A stretch of 64,000 nucleotides of DNA from Acidimicrobiaceae bacterium (GTDB lineage: Bacteria > Actinomycetota > Acidimicrobiia > Acidimicrobiales > Ilumatobacteraceae), in contig JAHEDX010000007.1 in NCBI GenBank assembly GCA_024641005.1, positions 1 to 64,000 of the forward strand, read 5' to 3'. Within the stretch, counting starts at the first letter, position 1. Every line of letters starts with the position of its first letter. Shown here piece after piece: positions 45,366 through 54,847 of this stretch. The translations under genes were made by a program, and so were the position numbers. A model generated the notes under the pieces. The model was not told the DNA's origin. It saw only the letters and a program-made list of their open reading frames with translations, and made no database searches.

Positions 45366-45814
45366 GTGCGACGAGCACACGGCGCGAGCTTGCCGCCGAG
45401 CCCTCATTGGTCTGGGCGGTGCTTGCCGGGTTCGATCGCATCGCCGACTGGGCGCCCAATGTCGACCATTCGTGCTCGCTCTCGTCGCAATCAGATGGGG
45501 TCGGTGCCATCCGCCGTGTGCAGGTGGGTCGGATGGCGTTGGTCGAGACGGTCACGGCTTGGGAGCCGGGTGCCCAGCTGGCGTACCGGGTCGACGGTCT
45601 GCCCGCCCGGCTCGGCACGATCTCGAACGCGTGGCACCTCGCGCCGTCCGCTGGTGGCGGGTCGACGGTCATCGTCACCTCAACTGTCGACACCGGACCA
45701 CGCCCGCCCCAACAGGCGATCGGGCGCCTGATCGCCCGCAAGCTCGCCTCGTCCTCCGAGGTGATGCTCGACGGACTCGCCGATCACCTCGACCGCGCGG
45801 TGGCACCGTCATGA
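45362..45814 (+). CDS. SRPBCC family (polyketide cyclase/START-like) protein
   Basis: EPSLVWAVLAGFDRIADWAPNVDHSCSL; GTGA overlap with upstream stop. Confidence 0.75.
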   Translation: MSATSTRRELAAEPSLVWAVLAGFDRIADWAPNVDHSCSLSSQSDGVGAIRRVQVGRMALVETVTAWEPGAQLAYRVDGLPARLGTISNAWHLAPSAGGGSTVIVTSTVDTGPRPPQQAIGRLIARKLASSSEVMLDGLADHLDRAVAPS

Positions 45815-48474
45815 CAGCATCTGCTGCCGACGTCTCGGGCATCGACCGCCCCGACATCGTCGTGATCCTCACCGACCAAGAGCGAGCGATCCCGCCGTAC
45901 GAGAACGACGAACTGGCGAGATGGCGTCACGACACGTTGACGGGTCGCCGCTGGTTCGACGAGCACGGCGTCAGCTTCGGCCACCACTACACGGGATCGC
46001 TCGCTTGCGTACCCAGCCGACCGACGCTGCTGACCGGCCAGTTCCCCGATGTGCATGGTGTCACACAGACGAACGGGCTCGGCAAGGCCGCAGACGACTC
46101 GCGCATGCGATGGCTGCGCGAGGGCGAGGTGCCCACGATCGGGCACTGGTTCCGCCTCGGCGGCTACGACACGCACTACGACGGCAAATGGCACGTCTCG
46201 CACGCCGATCTGATCGATCCCGTGACCGGGATGCCGCTGGCAACCAACGACGACGACGGCGTCGTCGACCCGGCCGCCGTGCAGGCCTATCTCGACGCCG
46301 ACCCACTGGACGCGTTCGGTTTCTCCGGCTGGGTCGGGCCCGAACCTCATGGGGCGGGCTTGGCGAATGCAGGCGTGCGCCGTGACCATCTGATCGCCGC
46401 TCGCGTGGTGGCATGGCTCGAGGACCGCTACTCACGACGACGCGCCCGCGACACGGCGGCGGCGCGGCCGTTCCTGCTGGTCGCCAGCTTCGTCAACCCC
46501 CATGACATCGTGTTGTTCCCCGCCTGGGCCCGTCGCGGGAACCCGATCGATCCGTCACCGATCGATCCGCCGCACGTGCCGCCCGCCTCCACGGCCGGCG
46601 AGGATCTCCGTACCAAACCTGCCGCTCAGATCGCGTACCGGGCCGCGTACGGCTCGGGCTACGGCCCGGCCCGGATGGTCGATCGGCTCTACGAGAAGAA
46701 CGGGCAGGCGTACCGGGACCTGTACTACCGATTGCACGCGGAGGTCGACGGTCCCCTCGATCGTGTGCGCCGGGCGGTCACCGAGAACGGCTCGACGAAC
46801 GCCGTGCTGGTCCGCTCGTCCGACCACGGCGATCTGCTCGGCGCCCACGGTGGTCTGCACCAGAAATGGTTCAACCTGTACGACGAGGCTGCTCGCGTGC
46901 CCTTCGTGATCGCACGAATCGGCGCCGTGGGTACGACGCCGACGGTCGTCTCCGACATGCCGACGTCGCACGTCGACCTGCTTCCCACACTGCTGGCGGC
47001 GGCCGGCATCGACCGAGAGGCCGTCGCCGGCGAGTTGCGCACTTCGTTCAGCGAATGCCATCCGCTGCCGGGTCGCAACCTGTTGCCGATCGTCGACGAT
47101 CAGTCGAGCGGCGATCTCGATCGCGCCGTCTACATGATCACCAGGGACAACATGCTCGAGGGCGACACCGCAGCATCGGGGTTGGCACAACGGCTCGGCC
47201 GTGCCGAGCATCCACCGGCTCCGCTTCGGATCCAGGTGCCGGCCCATGTCGGCGCCAACTTCGAGGCGATCGTGGCCCGTGTCGCTGCCGATCGTGGTGG
47301 TCACGACCATCTGTGGAAACTGGTTCGTACGTTCGACGACCCGATGACGTGGACCGAACCGGGGGTGAGACACCTGGCTGCTGACGGTCGGGGCGGACCC
47401 GTCTACCGGACCGAATCACTCCCGGACCAGTGGGAGCTGTACGACCTCACGGTCGACCCGGCCGAGGCCTGCAATCTGGCACACGAGCTCGGTGCCCCCG
47501 TCGTGTTCGATCACCTGTGCGGTCGCCTCGCCGACGAGCGCCGTGACTCCGTCCCCCGACGCAACCAACCATGGCCCTATGCGCCACTGGTCAGAAAGGC
47601 CCGCATGAAGAAGCCGCCGCCCCCTGCCCGCCTCGCCCGCAATCTGCTGCAGCGCGTCGGTATGCACCCCGACGACACCGAGCCGGTCCGGATCGGTGTC
47701 GATCTCTCCGGCCGTCGCGCGCTGGTGGTCGCCACCAACCACGGCACCCTCGACATCGGCAAGGCGACCGGTGTGTTCGCCAGCGAGATGACCGTGCCGT
47801 ACTACGCCTTCCTCGACGCCGGGATGTCCGTCGACGTCGCCAGCCCGAAGGGTGGCGTGATCCCGGTCGATCCCCAGTCGCTCAAGGCGGTGTTGCGCAC
47901 CCGGGACGACGATCGGTTCCTCGCCGACGACGAGTTCCGCGCGAAGGTCACCGATTCGTTGTCGATCGGCGACCTCGACATGAACGATTACGACATCGTG
48001 TTCCTCGCCGGCGGGTGGGGGGCAGCTTTTGATTTCGGCCTCTCCGAGGCGCTGGCCGCCAAGGTCACCGAAGCCAACGCGGCGGGCAAGGTGCTGGGTG
48101 GTGTGTGCCACGGTCCCCTCGGGTTGTGCAACGCCAAGGCGGCCGATGGCCGACCACTGGTCGAGGGCCGGCGGGTCACGGGCGTCTCCGACAAGCAGGT
48201 GCGCGAGCTGGGCATCGGGTCCACGCCCCAGCATCCCGAGACCGAACTTCGACGTATGGGCGCCGAGTACGAATCGGTCACGAAGTTCAGGGACCCGTTC
48301 GCGAACCACTGGGTCGTCGACGGCAACCTCGTCACTGGGCAGAACCAGAACGCCGGCCCGATGGTGGCGCGCGAGATGCTGCAACTCGTCGCGGCATCAC
48401 TCAGCGAGACCGATCGGCAACCACCCGACGAGGAGGCACCGAGCCGGCAATCAGGGGAGTACACCAATGGCTGA
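45811..48474 (+). CDS. Sulfatase fused to a C-terminal DJ-1/PfpI domain
   Basis: N-terminal sulfatase (DIVVILTDQE...HHYTGSLACVPSRPTLLTGQFPDVHGV; CVPSR); C-terminal DJ-1/PfpI (RALVVATNHG...DYDIVFLAGGWGAAFDF...GKVLGGVCHGPLGLCNAK) with Cys codon 48106-48108 in the nucleophile elbow. Confidence 0.87.
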   Translation: MTASAADVSGIDRPDIVVILTDQERAIPPYENDELARWRHDTLTGRRWFDEHGVSFGHHYTGSLACVPSRPTLLTGQFPDVHGVTQTNGLGKAADDSRMRWLREGEVPTIGHWFRLGGYDTHYDGKWHVSHADLIDPVTGMPLATNDDDGVVDPAAVQAYLDADPLDAFGFSGWVGPEPHGAGLANAGVRRDHLIAARVVAWLEDRYSRRRARDTAAARPFLLVASFVNPHDIVLFPAWARRGNPIDPSPIDPPHVPPASTAGEDLRTKPAAQIAYRAAYGSGYGPARMVDRLYEKNGQAYRDLYYRLHAEVDGPLDRVRRAVTENGSTNAVLVRSSDHGDLLGAHGGLHQKWFNLYDEAARVPFVIARIGAVGTTPTVVSDMPTSHVDLLPTLLAAAGIDREAVAGELRTSFSECHPLPGRNLLPIVDDQSSGDLDRAVYMITRDNMLEGDTAASGLAQRLGRAEHPPAPLRIQVPAHVGANFEAIVARVAADRGGHDHLWKLVRTFDDPMTWTEPGVRHLAADGRGGPVYRTESLPDQWELYDLTVDPAEACNLAHELGAPVVFDHLCGRLADERRDSVPRRNQPWPYAPLVRKARMKKPPPPARLARNLLQRVGMHPDDTEPVRIGVDLSGRRALVVATNHGTLDIGKATGVFASEMTVPYYAFLDAGMSVDVASPKGGVIPVDPQSLKAVLRTRDDDRFLADDEFRAKVTDSLSIGDLDMNDYDIVFLAGGWGAAFDFGLSEALAAKVTEANAAGKVLGGVCHGPLGLCNAKAADGRPLVEGRRVTGVSDKQVRELGIGSTPQHPETELRRMGAEYESVTKFRDPFANHWVVDGNLVTGQNQNAGPMVAREMLQLVAASLSETDRQPPDEEAPSRQSGEYTNG

Positions 48475-49282
48475 CGCACCGCGTTATGGAGAGATCGACC
48501 GCGCCTATGGCATGAGGCTGGCGACGACACCACCCGACGAGGACGGTCCGATCTGGATGGTCAACTTGATGAAGTACCGCGACAGGGCTGACTACGCGGA
48601 TGGTCGAGAGAGCTCGATCAGTGGCCGGGAGGCCGACGACATCTACGCGCCGGTCGACGTGCTCGCGAAGATCGGTGCCGAGGTCGTGTTCGTCGCCGAC
48701 GTCGATCAGCAGTTGCTCGGCGACGCTCCCGTCTGGGACCGGGTGGCGATCGTGAAGTACGCCACCCGGCGTTCGTTCATCGAGATGCAGAGCCGCCCCG
48801 ATTTCCAGGACAAGCACGCCCACAAGGAAGCCGGCATGCAGGCCACCATCGTCAGTGGATGTCTGCCGATTCCTCCCCCGCAGGGCGAGCCTGTCGACTG
48901 GGCCGACGTAGCGCACCCGCCCACGGTCGAAGATGGCCCCGTCGTGGTGATCCACGTGCTGAAGTTCGACGAGGCCTCGTCGAACGGCGTGACACCCGAC
49001 GAGATGGAGGCCTACCAGAACGCTGCGGCCGCAGTCGCCGTGCCACATGGCGTTCGGATCAACGGCTGGTTCTCCGTCGATGGAACGATCCTCGGCGACG
49101 GGCGATCGTGGGACCAGATCCGGTTCAACGAGTTCCCCAGCAAGGCAGCGTTCATGGCCGTGGTCACCGACCCGGCACGACTCGAAGCCCAGAAGGGCCA
49201 CCGGGAAGTGGCGATCGCCGACACCTACACGATGATCCTGCGGGCATCGATCAACCGAATCGCCGACTCGATATCGAGCTGA
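48467..49282 (+). CDS. DUF1330-like domain protein
   Basis: IWMVNLMKYRDRADYADG...VAIVKYATRRSFIEMQSRPDFQDKHAHKEAGM; overlaps fusion gene by 8 bp. Confidence 0.75.
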   Translation: MADAPRYGEIDRAYGMRLATTPPDEDGPIWMVNLMKYRDRADYADGRESSISGREADDIYAPVDVLAKIGAEVVFVADVDQQLLGDAPVWDRVAIVKYATRRSFIEMQSRPDFQDKHAHKEAGMQATIVSGCLPIPPPQGEPVDWADVAHPPTVEDGPVVVIHVLKFDEASSNGVTPDEMEAYQNAAAAVAVPHGVRINGWFSVDGTILGDGRSWDQIRFNEFPSKAAFMAVVTDPARLEAQKGHREVAIADTYTMILRASINRIADSISS

Positions 49283-49325
49283 GCGCAGCGCACCCGACAT
49301 CGAGGGCGGGCCGCTCGCAAGTCGG

Positions 49326-50144
49326 TCAGTCGGCGAGCGTGCCGGCGTAGACCTGCCACGCCAGAGCGCTCTTGGCGACGAGGCTGAGCACGATGTACAC
49401 CTTCTCGCCATAGAGGTAGTCGGCGAACCTGCCGCGGCGCCGGTACTGCAGCCACTGGTTGAGGCCGAAACAGTTGAACAGCACGAACAGCGACACGAAG
49501 ATGCCGTAGACGAACCCGGGCACGCCGTCGCCCTCGCGCTGGGCAGTGATCAGCGCGAGGGTGATCGTGATCCACGGCACGATGCCCGCCAGGCAACCGA
49601 ACACGAATGGCCACCAGTTGACGTGTGCACCTTGTCGGTTGACCTGCTCCATCATCAGGCCGAACAGGATCATGGTGGCGTTGACGGCGAACAGGCCGAT
49701 CAGGGCATAGATGTTCGTGATGCCGGGCAGCATCGCGATCAACACGATCATCAACGATGCGCTGATCGAGAACTCGATCCAGCGGGCGTAGTTGATTCCT
49801 CGCCTCAGGTTGGCCTCGTACCAGCCGACGATGCGCGGTGTCGCCATGAGGAGGTGATCGGCGGCCGCCAGGAACAGGAACAGTGCGATCACGGCCGAGA
49901 AGCGCAGGTCGAAGAACACCTTGTCGATCGTGAGCGGGGTGCCAGGGGGACCATCTTGCACCTGCGCCTGAACCGGGATCGAGAATCCGTTGCTGAGCAT
50001 CAGGACCAGGACTGCCTGCACCAGATGGGTGACGCCGACGCCGATGTTCCAGCGGCGCAGTGACCTGAGCCGTTCGTCTTGGGAAGTGATCTCGGCACGC
50101 TCGTCGGACGAGGTAGGCCGGTCGGGGGCGATGACATCTTTCAT
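49326..50144 (-). CDS. Heliorhodopsin
   Basis: Seven-TM protein; RRWNIGVGVTHLVQAVLVLMLS N-terminus, WIEFSISASLMIVLIAML, final helix VYIVLSLVAKSALAWQVYAGTL with putative Schiff-base Lys (codon 49371-49373, K258). Confidence 0.9.
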   Translation of the reverse strand: MKDVIAPDRPTSSDERAEITSQDERLRSLRRWNIGVGVTHLVQAVLVLMLSNGFSIPVQAQVQDGPPGTPLTIDKVFFDLRFSAVIALFLFLAAADHLLMATPRIVGWYEANLRRGINYARWIEFSISASLMIVLIAMLPGITNIYALIGLFAVNATMILFGLMMEQVNRQGAHVNWWPFVFGCLAGIVPWITITLALITAQREGDGVPGFVYGIFVSLFVLFNCFGLNQWLQYRRRGRFADYLYGEKVYIVLSLVAKSALAWQVYAGTLAD

Positions 50145-50173
50145 GACGGATCCTCGAGTTCGGTGGGTGCGTT

Positions 50174-50190
50174 CGAACACCACGTGTTCG
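50174..50190. promoter_or_regulatory. 17-bp palindrome CGAACAC-CAC-GTGTTCG upstream of heliorhodopsin
   Basis: Perfect 7-bp arms, 3-nt spacer, about 30 bp before the start codon. Confidence 0.55.
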
Positions 50191-50232
50191 TTGCCGGCGC
50201 GGCGACGGTGCGCCGGGCTCGGTGTTGTCGCA

Positions 50233-50769
50233 TCAGTTCGGACGACCGACAGCGGTCGGGGTCGGCTGGCCCAGCATCGAGCGCAGCATCCAAGCGGTCT
50301 TCTCGTGGACCTGTAGACGTTGCGTCAGCAGGTCGGCCGTCGACTCGTCATGGGCGGCCCCGACGGTGCCGAAGATGGATCGGATCGTGCGAGTGATGGC
50401 TTCGTGGCCGCTCACGAGGTCGGCGATCATCTCCTCGGCATCGGGAACACCTTCGGCCTCGGCGATGACGGTCAGCTGGGCGAACTGGGCGTAACTACCG
50501 GGGGCGAAGACGCCGAGCGAGCGGATCCTCTCTGCCAGCAGGTCAGCTGCCGCCCACATCTCGTTGTATTGCGTCTCGAACATCAGGTGGAGCGTGTTGA
50601 ACATCGGACCGGTGACGTTCCAGTGATAGTTGTGCGTCTTGAGGTACAGGGTGTAGGTGTCGGCCAACACCCTGCTCACGCCGTCTGCGATGGCGAGGCG
50701 ATCGTGCTCGGCGATGCCGATGTCGATCGTGGGAACGTCGGCGGCGGGGAAGTCGATGATCGAACTCAT
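50233..50769 (-). CDS. dps: Dps/ferritin-like DNA-protection protein
   Basis: [52 protein letters not shown] Dps ferroxidase signature. Confidence 0.93.
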
Positions 50770-50778
50770 GATGAACCT

Positions 50779-50804
50779 CTCTGGTGCGGACCTCTGGTGC
50801 GGAC
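50779..50804. repeat. Tandem 13-bp duplication CTCTGGTGCGGAC x2 in the dps 5' leader
   Basis: Directly readable; duplicates the CAGAGG Shine-Dalgarno-like segment on the minus strand. Confidence 0.75.
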
Positions 50805-50877
50805 CATTTGTTCAACATCATTTAGCATCTATTATTCCGCTTCCCGACAGCAAGGCAACTGGCCCAGCGCTACTCGG

Positions 50878-51657
50878 TCAGCGCTCGCAGCTGCGGGCAA
50901 GCGCGACCAGCTCGGCCAGCGTGTGCCCGGCTCCACCGACGATCGTCGGGGTGCCGGCCGCCCGCAGCGCTACGGCCGTTCGTTCGGCGAGTGGCCCCAT
51001 TGCTGCGGTGGTGACGGTGAGGACGGCGAGCGACGCGGCGTTCTCGTCGCAGCACCGGATGATCTCCTCGGAGGGCAGGTCCGATCCCAGATGGTGCACG
51101 TGCCAGTTGTCGGCTCTGAGGGCGACGGCGGCCATCGTCGTGGGCAGCGTGTGGCGGTCGCCGGCGACGGCCACGACGACAGCGGTGCCTCGGCGTCGTC
51201 CGCGCGGGTTGATCGCCAGGTCGCCCAGTAGGCGTTCCACGATTCCTGCCGCGCGATGCTCGACCCGGATGGTGAGGTCTCCGGTTTCCCAACCCAGCCC
51301 GATTCGATGCAGCGGTGGCACGAGCACCTGCTGCATGAGATCGATCACGGGTGCGCCCTCGTCGGCCAGTCGACGGGCGATCTTCGCGGCGGCCGTCTCG
51401 TCACCTGCGACGAGGGCCTCGTACATGTTCTCGGCCGCGTGTTCGAGGCGTGACGACCGCGGTTTCGGGGGCGCCTTGGGCGCATGGCGTTCGCGGTCGA
51501 GCGCGACGATCTCCTCGTGGCTGACGAGATAGCGGCCACCGACCATCTCGGCGCCGAGCCGACCGCTGCGCACCCAGCGATACGCCGTCTGGTAATGCAC
51601 CCCCAACTCGCCGGCCGCCGTTTGGAGATCGAGCCTGGCGAGCGACGGTGCGTCCAT
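50878..51657 (-). CDS. MerR-type HTH + B12-binding transcriptional regulator (CarH/LitR-like photoreceptor)
   Basis: HTH (LQTAAGELGVHYQTAYRWVRSGRLGAEMVGGRYLVS); W-x9-EH (WETGDLTIRVEH); B12 domain VAGDRHTLPTTMAAVALRADNWHVHHLGSDLP; leaderless TATGGT-N6-ATG. Confidence 0.87.
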   Translation of the reverse strand: MDAPSLARLDLQTAAGELGVHYQTAYRWVRSGRLGAEMVGGRYLVSHEEIVALDRERHAPKAPPKPRSSRLEHAAENMYEALVAGDETAAAKIARRLADEGAPVIDLMQQVLVPPLHRIGLGWETGDLTIRVEHRAAGIVERLLGDLAINPRGRRRGTAVVVAVAGDRHTLPTTMAAVALRADNWHVHHLGSDLPSEEIIRCCDENAASLAVLTVTTAAMGPLAERTAVALRAAGTPTIVGGAGHTLAELVALARSCER

Positions 51658-51680
51658 ATGCCGACCATAGACCCAACTCG

Positions 51681-51692
51681 GTGTTTGAACAC
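51681..51692. promoter_or_regulatory. Palindrome GTGTT-TG-AACAC near the -35 region of the carH-like promoter
   Basis: Perfect 5-bp arms in the divergent intergenic region. Confidence 0.5.
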
Positions 51693-51730
51693 TAACTCAG
51701 ACTAAAACTGGCTAAGTCACACTAATGTGG
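51691..51730 (+). promoter_or_regulatory. Four tandem 10-bp direct repeats (R)CTAA: ACTAACTCAG/ACTAAAACTG/GCTAAGTCAC/ACTAATGTGG
   Basis: CTAA starts at 51692, 51702, 51712 and 51722, exact 10-bp period; overlaps the predicted -35/-10 of the + strand operon (TAATGT at 51724). Confidence 0.7.
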
Positions 51731-51786
51731 TGGATGGATCGTGGGCGCCGAGGCCTCCGGTCGACCGAACTCGAGAAGGGTCAACC

Positions 51787-53052
51787 ATGACATCGACTGC
51801 ACCGACGGGCACGAGGGAACTGCCGCCCGAGGCAGACGTCGTGGTCGTCGGCGCCGGGCTGGCAGGTTTGGCGGCGGCGCGAGCCCTGCATCGTGCCGGT
51901 CGGCACGCTGTCGTGGTCGAGGCATCCGATGGCGTCGGCGGTCGCGTCCGGACCGATGTCGTCGACGGGTTCCGACTCGACCGTGGGTTTCAGGTTCTCC
52001 TCACCGCGTATCCCGAGCTGCGCAGCCAGTTCGACCTCGAGGCGCTCGACCTGCGCCGCTTCGAGCCGGGCGCTCTGGTGTGGAACGGTTCCTCGAACGA
52101 TCTCGTCGGCGATCCGGTCCGTCGGCCGAGCACCCTGCTGAGGACCGGGCTGGCACCCATCGGCTCGGTGGCCGACAAGCTGCGGATCCTGCGCCAGCGG
52201 GTCCGACTCCATCGCGCCGCCGCCCCTGATCTCCTGCGTCAGCGCGACGTCAGTACCTTGACAGCGCTTCACGAGCAGGGATTCAGCGATCGCGTGATCG
52301 AGCGGTTCTTTCGTCCGCTCGTCGGTGGCATCCAGCTCGACCCTTCCCTGCAGACGAGCCGACGCATGTTCGATGTGATCCTGCGCAGCCTGATCGATGG
52401 CGACGTCGCTGTGCCGGCGAGAGGGATGGGTGCGATCCCGGCTCAACTGGCCGGGCACCTTCCGCCGGGCATGATCCATCTCAACACCGAGGTCGTCGGC
52501 GTCACACCCGGTGAGGTGGCGCTGTCGGGAGGTCGACGGATCAGCGCTCAGAGTGTCGTGGTCGCCGTCGAGGGCCCGCGTGCGGCGTCACTGCTCGGCC
52601 TGGCGCCGGTCGATTCGAACCCGGCCTCGTGTGTGTGGTTCGCCGCGGGACAAGCCCCGATCCCCGATCGCTACATCGTGCTCGACGGCACGGGTGTGGG
52701 TCCTGCGCTCAACACCTCGGTGATGAGCAATGTCGCGCCGGAGTATGCCCCGACGGGTTCTGCACTGATCGTTGCGGCGTGCCCCGGAGTGAACGATCCC
52801 CACATCGAACCGGTCGTGCGAACGCAGCTCCGTGCGATGTGGGGGCCCGTCGTGGACACGTGGCGTCACCTTCGAACCGACGCGATCGCCCACGGCCAAC
52901 CACGCCAGCACCCTCCGTTCTCGCCGAAGCAGCGGATCGCCCTCGGCGACGGCTTGTTCGTGTGCGGTGACCACCGTGACACAGCGTCGATCCAGGGCGC
53001 ACTGTTCTCTGGTCGGCGGTGTGGCGAAGCCGTCGCCTCGTGGTTGACCTGA
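51787..53052 (+). CDS. NAD(P)/FAD-dependent oxidoreductase (amine oxidase/phytoene desaturase-like)
   Basis: DVVVVGAGLAGLAAARALHRAGRHAVVVEASDGVGGRVRTDVVDGFRLDRGFQVLLTAYPE; C-terminal GDGLFVCGDHRDTASIQGALFSGRRCGEAV. Confidence 0.9.
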   Translation: MTSTAPTGTRELPPEADVVVVGAGLAGLAAARALHRAGRHAVVVEASDGVGGRVRTDVVDGFRLDRGFQVLLTAYPELRSQFDLEALDLRRFEPGALVWNGSSNDLVGDPVRRPSTLLRTGLAPIGSVADKLRILRQRVRLHRAAAPDLLRQRDVSTLTALHEQGFSDRVIERFFRPLVGGIQLDPSLQTSRRMFDVILRSLIDGDVAVPARGMGAIPAQLAGHLPPGMIHLNTEVVGVTPGEVALSGGRRISAQSVVVAVEGPRAASLLGLAPVDSNPASCVWFAAGQAPIPDRYIVLDGTGVGPALNTSVMSNVAPEYAPTGSALIVAACPGVNDPHIEPVVRTQLRAMWGPVVDTWRHLRTDAIAHGQPRQHPPFSPKQRIALGDGLFVCGDHRDTASIQGALFSGRRCGEAVASWLT

Positions 53053-53058
53053 ACGGGC

Positions 53059-53883
53059 GTGGCCACGATGGCGACCACTTTCCCACCCCTCGGCCTCGTC
53101 GAATCGCTCGAGCCCGTCACCCCCGATCCACCGGTCTGGTCGCGCCGTCCGGTGCTTCGACAGCACTGGTCGCAGCTCGCGTATTTTCATTGGCGCTACC
53201 GCCCCGACGTCGTGCAGCGGCTCCTGCCCGACGGCGTGCGGGTCGACACATTCGACGGGTCGGCGTGGGTCGGTCTGATCCCGTTCGAGATGCGTGATGT
53301 TCGGATCGGCCCGACACCGGCCATGCCCTGGCTGGGAAGCTTCATCGAGACCAATGTGCGCACCTACGTGTTCGATGCGGCGGGCCGTCGAGCGGTGTGG
53401 TTCTTCTCGCTCGACGTCCCGCGTTCGGCGATCGTCGGTGTCGCCAGATCCGTGTTCTCGCTCCCGTATCGTTGGGCGGCCGCCGAGCACGTCGTCGAGC
53501 GCGACTGGCATCGCTACCGCACGACCAGGCGTTGGCCCCGCGTCTCGTCGCCGTACGCCGACATGAGCTTCTGCGTCGGTGACCCCATCGCCGACGAGGA
53601 CGTCAGCGATCTCGATCATTTCCTGAGTGCCCGTTGGGCCCTGGTCACAGCTCGGCGACACCAGCTGCTGTACGGCAGGGTCGATCATCCGCGTTGGCCG
53701 CTGCATCATGTCGAACGGGTGAGCATCGAGCAGAACCTGATCCAGGCTGCCGGCCTCCCGGCACCCAGCGGAGCGCCGCACGCGCTGTACTCGCCCGGGG
53801 TCGATGTTCGCGTCGCCTGGTTCGAGAACGTGGTTGCCACAACTGGCGCTGAACCGACGCTGCCCTCAGAGTTGGGCCGATGA
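53059..53883 (+). CDS. DUF2071 (YqjF-like) protein
   Basis: LRQHWSQLAYFHWRYRPDVVQRLLPDGVRVDTFDGSAWVGLIPFEM...NVRTYV. Confidence 0.82.
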   Translation: MATMATTFPPLGLVESLEPVTPDPPVWSRRPVLRQHWSQLAYFHWRYRPDVVQRLLPDGVRVDTFDGSAWVGLIPFEMRDVRIGPTPAMPWLGSFIETNVRTYVFDAAGRRAVWFFSLDVPRSAIVGVARSVFSLPYRWAAAEHVVERDWHRYRTTRRWPRVSSPYADMSFCVGDPIADEDVSDLDHFLSARWALVTARRHQLLYGRVDHPRWPLHHVERVSIEQNLIQAAGLPAPSGAPHALYSPGVDVRVAWFENVVATTGAEPTLPSELGR

Positions 53884-54391: not shown

Positions 54392-54847
54392 ATGGCCCGC
54401 TACCTCATGCACATCCGAACACCGCTCTCTCCGACCGACGCGTTCGCCTACATGGCGGATCTCTCGAACTTCGCCGAGTGGGATCCGGGGGTCGATCACG
54501 TCGAACAGGTGGAGGGCGAAGGCGCCGGGCCCGGCGCTGCCTACGACGTAGCGGTCAAGGCTCTCGGGCGTTCGATCACGCTTCGCTACGACACCGTCGC
54601 CTACGAGCCCCCGTCCACGGTCGTGGCGTTCGCCGAGAGCAGCGTGCTCACCTCACATGACACGATCACCGTGCAAGCCGACGGATCGGGATCGGTCGTG
54701 ACCTATGACGCAGTACTGAAACTGAAAGGTCCACTCGGTCTCGCCGACCCCCTGCTCGGTCGGAGCTTCAAGCAGATCGGCGATCGCGCTGGGGCGGGAC
54801 TGGTGACAGCCCTCGATGGAGAGCGCGTCACGGAGCCGGCATCATGA
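54392..54847 (+). CDS. SRPBCC family protein
   Basis: PLSPTDAFAYMADLSNFAEWDPGVDHVEQV...VTYDAVLKLKGPLGLADPLLGRSF. Confidence 0.85.
   Translation: MARYLMHIRTPLSPTDAFAYMADLSNFAEWDPGVDHVEQVEGEGAGPGAAYDVAVKALGRSITLRYDTVAYEPPSTVVAFAESSVLTSHDTITVQADGSGSVVTYDAVLKLKGPLGLADPLLGRSFKQIGDRAGAGLVTALDGERVTEPAS

What the first reader, a model, noticed from the sequence alone, without database searches (positions are those of the whole stretch)
49326..51657. Heliorhodopsin - Dps - B12 photoreceptor (CarH/LitR-like) gene block
Three co-directional genes encode a retinal protein, a DNA-protecting mini-ferritin and a MerR/B12 regulator with the W-x9-EH light-sensor signature. Heliorhodopsin function is unresolved. 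Its linkage to dps and a chemically distinct photoreceptor suggests a light/oxidative-stress circuit in which dps and heliorhodopsin expression may be B12-light-controlled.
Basis: partly seen in the sequence, partly recalled or inferred. Interest (0 to 1): 0.87.

Follow-up and report, generated by a model that had tools for sequence, protein, structure and literature searches.

The report
B12 light switch controlling dps–heliorhodopsin
In this aquatic actinobacterium a predicted vitamin-B12 light sensor sits beside genes for an iron-storing DNA-protection protein and a mysterious retinal protein (heliorhodopsin), and the sequence to which the sensor should bind lies exactly on their likely shared promoter, which gives a direct way to test what heliorhodopsin is for.

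Summary
The three genes are real: heliorhodopsin (HeR; start is ATG 50144, not 50183), Dps, and a LitR/CarH-like AdoB12 photoreceptor with all four published light-sensing motifs. The exact trio is not conserved: of over 80 relatives' HeR loci none is next to dps, and HeR adjoins this LitR family in only two other loci.

The regulatory idea nevertheless gains strong sequence support. LitR promoters of relatives share an operator of TTNAGY-type direct repeats every 10 bp. A matrix trained on other genomes finds two places in the 64 kb: the litR/oxidase promoter and the dps promoter (17.7 bits; next site 7.5). The dps promoter also matches, at 26.8 bits (next unrelated 4.6), the promoter of a LitR-controlled small-membrane-protein operon that sits in this position in the nearest relatives and is absent here. 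So dps–HeR appears to have taken over a LitR promoter. HeR has no visible promoter of its own and should be co-transcribed.

More generally, this LitR clade pairs with type-1 rhodopsins in 18 loci, 17 with an operator, and in one distant genome HeR is divergent from litR with the operator between them. No experiment exists; the draft genome shows no retinal-forming oxygenase.

The parts
49326..50144 (-). heliorhodopsin gene (start revised to ATG 50144)
   Evidence: PF18761 E=7.9e-98; NF038020 above cut-off; Schiff-base Lys and counterion Glu aligned with 48C12
50145..50232 (-). dps-HeR intergenic gap, 88 bp, with a CGAACAC-N3-GTGTTCG palindrome (50174-50190); no terminator or promoter detected
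   Evidence: folding no better than shuffles, z=-0.22
50233..50769 (-). dps (mini-ferritin) gene
   Evidence: PF00210 E=7.3e-29; 8ff9 E=1.6e-67
50831..50858 (-). predicted dps promoter: -35 TTGCCT (50858-50853), 16 bp, -10 AATAAT (50836-50831)
   Evidence: only promoter-like site in 49200-52000
50811..50844 (+). LitR operator, three 10-bp direct repeats (TTCAACATCA TTTAGCATCT ATTATTCCGC), overlapping the dps -10 and expected start of transcription
   Evidence: 17.7 bits with a matrix from other genomes' litR promoters, next best elsewhere 7.5; genome-wide pattern; 26.8 bits with matrix of small-membrane-protein promoters; simulations
50878..51657 (-). litR: HTH_17/BldC-like DNA-binding domain + AdoB12-binding domains, photoreceptor-regulator
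51683..51726 (-). LitR operator of the divergent litR/oxidase promoter: four 10-bp direct repeats (ATTAG.. CTTAG.. TTTAG.. GTTAG..)
   Evidence: 23.9 and 22.1 bits; best hit of model R1 in the whole genome
51787..53052 (+). divergent FAD amine-oxidase-like gene (weak HpnE/CrtI-type relative), second predicted target
   Evidence: PF01593 E=2e-42; NCBIfam HpnE below cut-off; 85% identical orthologue in the same position in G020
53059..53883 (+). DUF2071 gene directly downstream of the oxidase, probably same transcript
   Evidence: PF09844 E=7e-66; DUF2071 also next to litR in L172, L174, L177

Best explanation
The block is a light-responsive regulon run by a LitR/CarH-like B12 photoreceptor. In the dark, AdoB12-loaded LitR is expected to form an oligomer that binds 10-bp direct repeats overlapping the -10/start region of the dps promoter and the divergent litR/oxidase promoter, and to repress both. 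UV, blue or green light would break the Co-C bond, LitR would let go, and a dps-HeR transcript, litR itself and the FAD oxidase would be made. Dps would then take iron out of Fenton chemistry while HeR is placed in the membrane as a fast, reversible light sensor or regulator. dps-HeR seems to have replaced a small membrane-protein operon that LitR controls from this same position in the nearest relatives. Shown by sequence: genes, signature residues, operator repeats, their place on the dps promoter, their recurrence in relatives. Inferred: repression in the dark, release by light, dps-HeR co-transcription, HeR output.
For: Operator matrix trained on 13 litR promoters of other genomes: only two places in the 64-kb window, litR/oxidase (23.9) and dps (17.7), next 7.5. 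0 of 60 simulated 64-kb sequences reach 17.7; p=2.5e-4 for the local gap. Whole genome: the direct-repeat pattern hits 4 sites in 4.14 Mb, 3 of them these two promoters; control pattern 2. This pattern was written after seeing the sites, so it is a weaker test. Out-of-sample litR loci carry the operator too (14 of 22 test loci in the clade at 13 bits or more). A matrix of nine small-membrane-protein promoters without window data scores dps 26.8, next unrelated 4.6. That operon sits at this place in L031/L153 and L151 and is absent from G000. In L110 it is followed by dps and preceded by the oxidase; in L050 it is convergent with dps. Only one promoter-like site, overlapped by the operator, and no terminator. 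All light-signature residues invariant; fold matches CarH and photocobilins. LitR-rhodopsin pairing in 18 loci. HeR next to the same LitR family in L169 and L204, the latter with an operator between.
Against: No expression or binding data. HeR-dps adjacency is seen only in this genome, and no other HeR upstream region tested in relatives carries the operator. Orthologous dps promoters in relatives lack it. The dps site has three repeats of which the outer two are imperfect, and it scores below most litR sites. In L169 the tandem HeR-litR pair has no operator upstream. No Blh or RPE65-type retinal-forming enzyme was found in this 94%-complete draft, so HeR may depend on outside retinal.
Confidence: 0.62

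Rival explanations
1. LitR controls dps (and litR/oxidase), but HeR is transcribed separately from its own promoter in the 88-bp gap and is only a passenger next to the regulon.
For: HeR in relatives sits in varied surroundings without the operator, and the gap holds a perfect 7-bp palindrome that could be an operator or processing site.
Against: No promoter-like or terminator-like site in the gap; same strand, 88 bp; HeR adjoins litR in two further loci, one with an operator in the shared promoter region.
Confidence: 0.2
2. The dps operator is an inherited relic: the promoter came with a lost small membrane-protein operon, and the present LitR no longer controls dps-HeR in a meaningful way.
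For: The promoter is nearly the small-membrane-protein promoter, and the operon itself is gone from this genome; outer repeats are imperfect.
Against: The repeats keep exact 10-bp register and the central unit is perfect; the LitR recognition region is invariant; a relic in a non-coding gap would be expected to decay.
Confidence: 0.12
3. The regulator senses B12 status, redox or another signal rather than light, as some B12-independent or effector-type relatives of CarH do.
For: CarA acts without B12 (PMC8156234) and a class II LitR serves as effector of another photoreceptor (PMC9758184 abstract); the protein scores far below the CarH equivalog cut-off (50 versus 400).
Against: All residues that define light-responsive B12 domains are present and invariant (PMC11796333); nearest solved structures are photocobilins and CarH; the clade's main partners are light-driven rhodopsins.
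Confidence: 0.15
4. Ordinary chance neighbourhood: the operator serves only litR and the oxidase, and dps and HeR merely lie nearby.
For: The exact trio occurs in no other genome examined.
Against: An independent matrix places the second-best site of the whole window on the dps promoter.
Confidence: 0.06

Closest known systems
CarH (Thermus thermophilus, Bacillus megaterium) and LitR (Streptomyces) B12 photoreceptors
   Same: AdoB12-binding helical bundle plus Rossmann domain with Wx9EH and lower-ligand His; tandem direct-repeat operators overlapping promoters; fold matches 5c8d/5c8e/5c8f (PMC8156234)
   Different: DNA-binding domain is HTH_17/BldC-like; operator period is 10 bp with TTNAGY core instead of 11-bp nAnnTnnACAn; targets are dps-HeR or rhodopsins rather than carotenoid genes; far below the CarH equivalog score
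BldC family regulators
   Same: MerR-like winged helix without coiled coil that binds head-to-tail AT-rich direct repeats of variable number, up to four (PMC5859096)
   Different: BldC has no B12 or other sensor domain, and its repeat unit is about 9 bp (AATTXXXX(C))
HeR operons with a 'MerR family transcriptional regulator' (one of ten HeR neighbour groups)
   Same: HeR in one operon with a MerR-type regulator (PMC11109279)
   Different: The passages found there do not describe these regulators as B12 photoreceptors, show no operator, and the text does not mention dps; whether that MerR group contains LitR could not be checked (supplements not readable here)
HeRs linked to oxidative-stress genes (catalase, peroxidase, thioredoxin)
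   Same: Proposed role of HeR in light-induced oxidative stress defence (PMC8612252)
   Different: dps is not mentioned there, and no B12 regulator or promoter element linked the genes
Photocobilins (8j2w, 8j2y)
   Same: Closest solved B12 light-sensing domains by sequence profile, E=2.5e-31
   Different: By established knowledge they carry a bilin-binding domain and lack this DNA-binding domain

Membership tests
CarH/LitR B12 photoreceptor-regulators | N-terminal MerR-type winged-helix DNA-binding domain | tested here: inconclusive
   HTH_17/excisionase-type domain (PF12728, TIGR01764), no canonical MerR hit; model aligns with full-length CarH
CarH/LitR B12 photoreceptor-regulators | C-terminal B12-binding_2 and B12-binding domains | tested here: met
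   PF02607 41.9 bits (cut-off 23) and PF02310 36.1 bits (cut-off 32.1)
CarH/LitR B12 photoreceptor-regulators | Light signature GxxW, EH, GxxH, GxxxP (W131, E141, H142, H177 of TtCarH) | tested here: met
   G120xxW123, E133H134, G166xxH169, G191xxxP195, invariant in 13 orthologues; signature from PMC11796333
CarH/LitR B12 photoreceptor-regulators | NCBIfam CarH equivalog score | tested here: not met
   50 bits against a cut-off of 400; filed as LitR/CarH-like, not as CarH itself
CarH/LitR B12 photoreceptor-regulators | Tandem direct-repeat operator at target promoters | tested here: met
   10-bp repeats at litR promoters and the dps promoter; period differs from the 11 bp of CarH; binding itself not tested
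CarH/LitR B12 photoreceptor-regulators | AdoB12-dependent oligomer that dissociates in light | not testable with these tools
   needs purified protein
Heliorhodopsin | Family profile above curated cut-off; Schiff-base Lys and counterion Glu | tested here: met
Heliorhodopsin | Retinal binding and inverted topology | not testable with these tools
   inferred from homology only; no retinal-forming oxygenase of PF15461 or PF03055 found in the draft
Dps | Ferritin-like Dps fold with ferroxidase motif (HWN...LHxxFE...DxxAE) | tested here: met
   PF00210 above cut-off; aligns over 153 residues with the solved stress protein 8ff9; motif read in the sequence; NCBIfam Dps equivalogs matched only below their cut-offs

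The most novel reading that the evidence does not exclude
A distinct branch of B12 photoreceptors with BldC-like DNA-binding domains and 10-bp direct-repeat operators serves as the dedicated light switch for retinal proteins in Actinomycetota: proton-pumping (DTE) and possibly sodium-pumping (NDQ) type-1 rhodopsins in many members, and heliorhodopsin, with dps, in this genome. Cells would thus use one chemically different photoreceptor to decide when to build another, and HeR would be a light-induced part of a photo-oxidative stress regulon.
Probability: 0.55. Interest if true: 0.82.

Novelty: new variant of a known kind. Interest (0 to 1): 0.73.

Why it matters
HeR function is an open question, and known gene neighbours differ from lineage to lineage. 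Here a named operator, on a named promoter, under a photoreceptor whose chemistry is understood, predicts when HeR should be made and with what partner. The wider result, a B12 photoreceptor clade with its operator beside type-1 rhodopsin genes in 17 loci of Acidimicrobiia and Nocardioidaceae, would link two unrelated light-sensing chemistries in one regulatory chain and gives a compact, testable regulon.

Tried and rejected
Conserved HeR-dps-LitR cassette: rejected; only this genome among the 149 relatives searched. HeR promoters of relatives under the same operator: no site above background in the HeR loci scanned. dps promoters of relatives under the operator: none. Hidden terminator between dps and HeR: no terminator-like site, folding not better than shuffles. 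LexA/SOS-box reading of the CGAACAC-N3-GTGTTCG palindrome: spacing (7 between CGAAC and GTTCG) does not fit the CGAAC-N4-GTTCG form known to me; not pursued. Whole-genome search with the 36-column sequence model R1 lacked power (litR site E=0.67, dps site not reported), so matrices and an explicit pattern were used. Fourth genome-wide pattern hit (C123:1660) scores 11 bits, is GC-rich and was judged chance. Retinal synthesis: Blh and RPE65 families absent from the draft. The first Pfam call failed on a wrong frame.

Full report
What is there. The window lies in a 4.14-Mb draft genome (94% complete), contig C11. Its family includes Ilumatobacter (contig lengths of G057 and G007 equal those of Ilumatobacter records), so the source is very probably an Ilumatobacteraceae actinobacterium. 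On the minus strand, in transcription order: litR (50878-51657), dps (50233-50769), HeR (49326-50144). Divergent on the plus strand: a FAD amine-oxidase-like gene (51787-53052) and a DUF2071 gene. HeR and Dps are secure family members, with the HeR retinal lysine and counterion glutamate conserved. The regulator has an HTH_17/BldC-like DNA-binding domain and two B12-binding domains; a structure model (pLDDT 91) finds CarH and photocobilins as nearest solved folds. Every element of the published light-sensing signature (GxxW, EH, GxxH, GxxxP; PMC11796333) is present and invariant in 13 orthologues.

Is the trio conserved? No. Of 149 relatives HeR occurs in 81, a dps like this one (60% identity or more) in about 20 and a close LitR in about 15, but positions coincide only in this genome for dps-HeR, and in G141 for HeR-litR. 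tblastn over the HeR loci gave the same result. The window HeR groups with that of a same-genus genome (G007, 74% identical) and two of other families (98% support), whereas the other HeRs of the genus are of other branches; in G007 it lies among other genes. So the neighbourhood is recent.

The operator. Reading the litR promoters of orthologues side by side shows direct repeats with a TTNAGY core every 10 bp, three to five copies. A matrix trained on 13 such promoters from other genomes was run over the window: it returned the litR/oxidase promoter (23.9 and 22.1 bits) and the dps promoter (17.7), with nothing else above 7.5 apart from overlapping registers of these sites. Simulated 64-kb sequences never reached 17.7 (0 of 60); within the litR-dps gap, with its own composition, p is 2.5e-4. 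In the whole genome the pattern TYA-N7-TYAGY-N5-TYA hits four sites, three of them these two promoters, against two for the reversed control; the pattern was written with these sites in view and counts for less. litR loci not used in training carry the operator as well (14 of 22 in the clade at 13 bits or more). The dps site overlaps the only promoter-like sequence of the block, -10 AATAAT at 50836-50831, where binding should block transcription, as in CarH (PMC8156234).

Where the dps promoter came from. In the nearest LitR relatives (L031/L153 and L151) the gene after litR is an uncharacterised membrane protein of 70-80 residues, with its own operator and usually followed by a second small one. 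The same operon with operator recurs away from litR in G007, G009, G034, G072 and G147. A matrix built from nine of these promoters, with no window sequence, scores the window's dps promoter 26.8 bits; the next unrelated window site scores 4.6. The small gene is absent from this genome. In G112 the order is oxidase, small1, small2, dps, and in G007 the pair is convergent with dps. The simplest reading is that dps, already a neighbour of this module, came under the LitR promoter when the small genes were lost, and that HeR follows in the same transcript.

What this LitR branch does elsewhere. In 18 of 77 LitR rows a type-1 rhodopsin gene lies beside litR (divergent in all but L151), and in 17 an operator of 12 bits or more is present. 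Three rhodopsins read in full carry a DTE motif (proton-pump type) and that of L179 an NDQ motif (sodium-pump type by established knowledge). A Blh-type retinal-forming gene lies near several of them. The rows with rhodopsin cluster in the clade that holds the window's LitR (34 rows, 97% support). HeR takes the rhodopsin's place in three separate loci: here, in L169 (tandem HeR-litR, gap about 54 bp, no operator seen) and in L204 (divergent, operator of 15 bits between). With about one HeR per genome, a rough estimate of mine gives about 0.04 such close adjacencies by chance in 77 loci; two were found besides the window.

How it most likely works. By analogy with CarH, dark AdoB12-LitR represses; light releases dps-HeR, litR and the oxidase. 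Dps removes iron and peroxide; HeR adds a fast membrane light sensor. Not shown: light response, co-transcription, retinal supply (this genome has no type-1 rhodopsin, Blh or RPE65 match), and what HeR acts on. Literature searches found HeR-MerR operons as a named group (PMC11109279) and HeR near other oxidative-stress genes (PMC8612252), but no report of a LitR operator at HeR, dps or rhodopsin genes in the held library.

Verdict. Observation confirmed; interpretation partly supported and sharpened.

Noticed in passing
L031:5798-6040 -, L050:6927-7136 -, L151:5867-6064 +, L230:3093-3302 +: A pair of uncharacterised small membrane proteins (no Pfam or NCBIfam hit for the first) forms a recurrent LitR-controlled operon with a conserved GGAATAAATA..ACTAAA..ATGTTGAA promoter; absent from the window's genome.
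   Followed up: partly
L179:4038-4790 -: A rhodopsin with an NDQ motif (sodium-pump type) is divergent from a LitR gene with five overlapping operator registers (up to 34 bits).
   Followed up: partly
L166 and L167 (Aeromicrobium sp., Nocardioides sp. Soil774): The LitR-operator-rhodopsin arrangement is also found in Nocardioidaceae, outside Acidimicrobiia, which suggests transfer or old origin.
   Followed up: partly
window 45811-48474 +: One ORF of 887 aa joins a sulfatase domain (PF00884) with a DJ-1/PfpI domain (PF01965), an unusual fusion.
   Followed up: no
window 50174-50190: Perfect palindrome CGAACAC-N3-GTGTTCG between dps and HeR; possible binding site of another regulator.
   Followed up: partly
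window 54392-54847 +: SRPBCC-type protein weakly matching the Rv0910 toxin family (below cut-off) in the gene string after the oxidase and DUF2071.
   Followed up: no
L104 (G033:C4): A second, very divergent HeR in a genome that already has one (long branch in the HeR tree).
   Followed up: no
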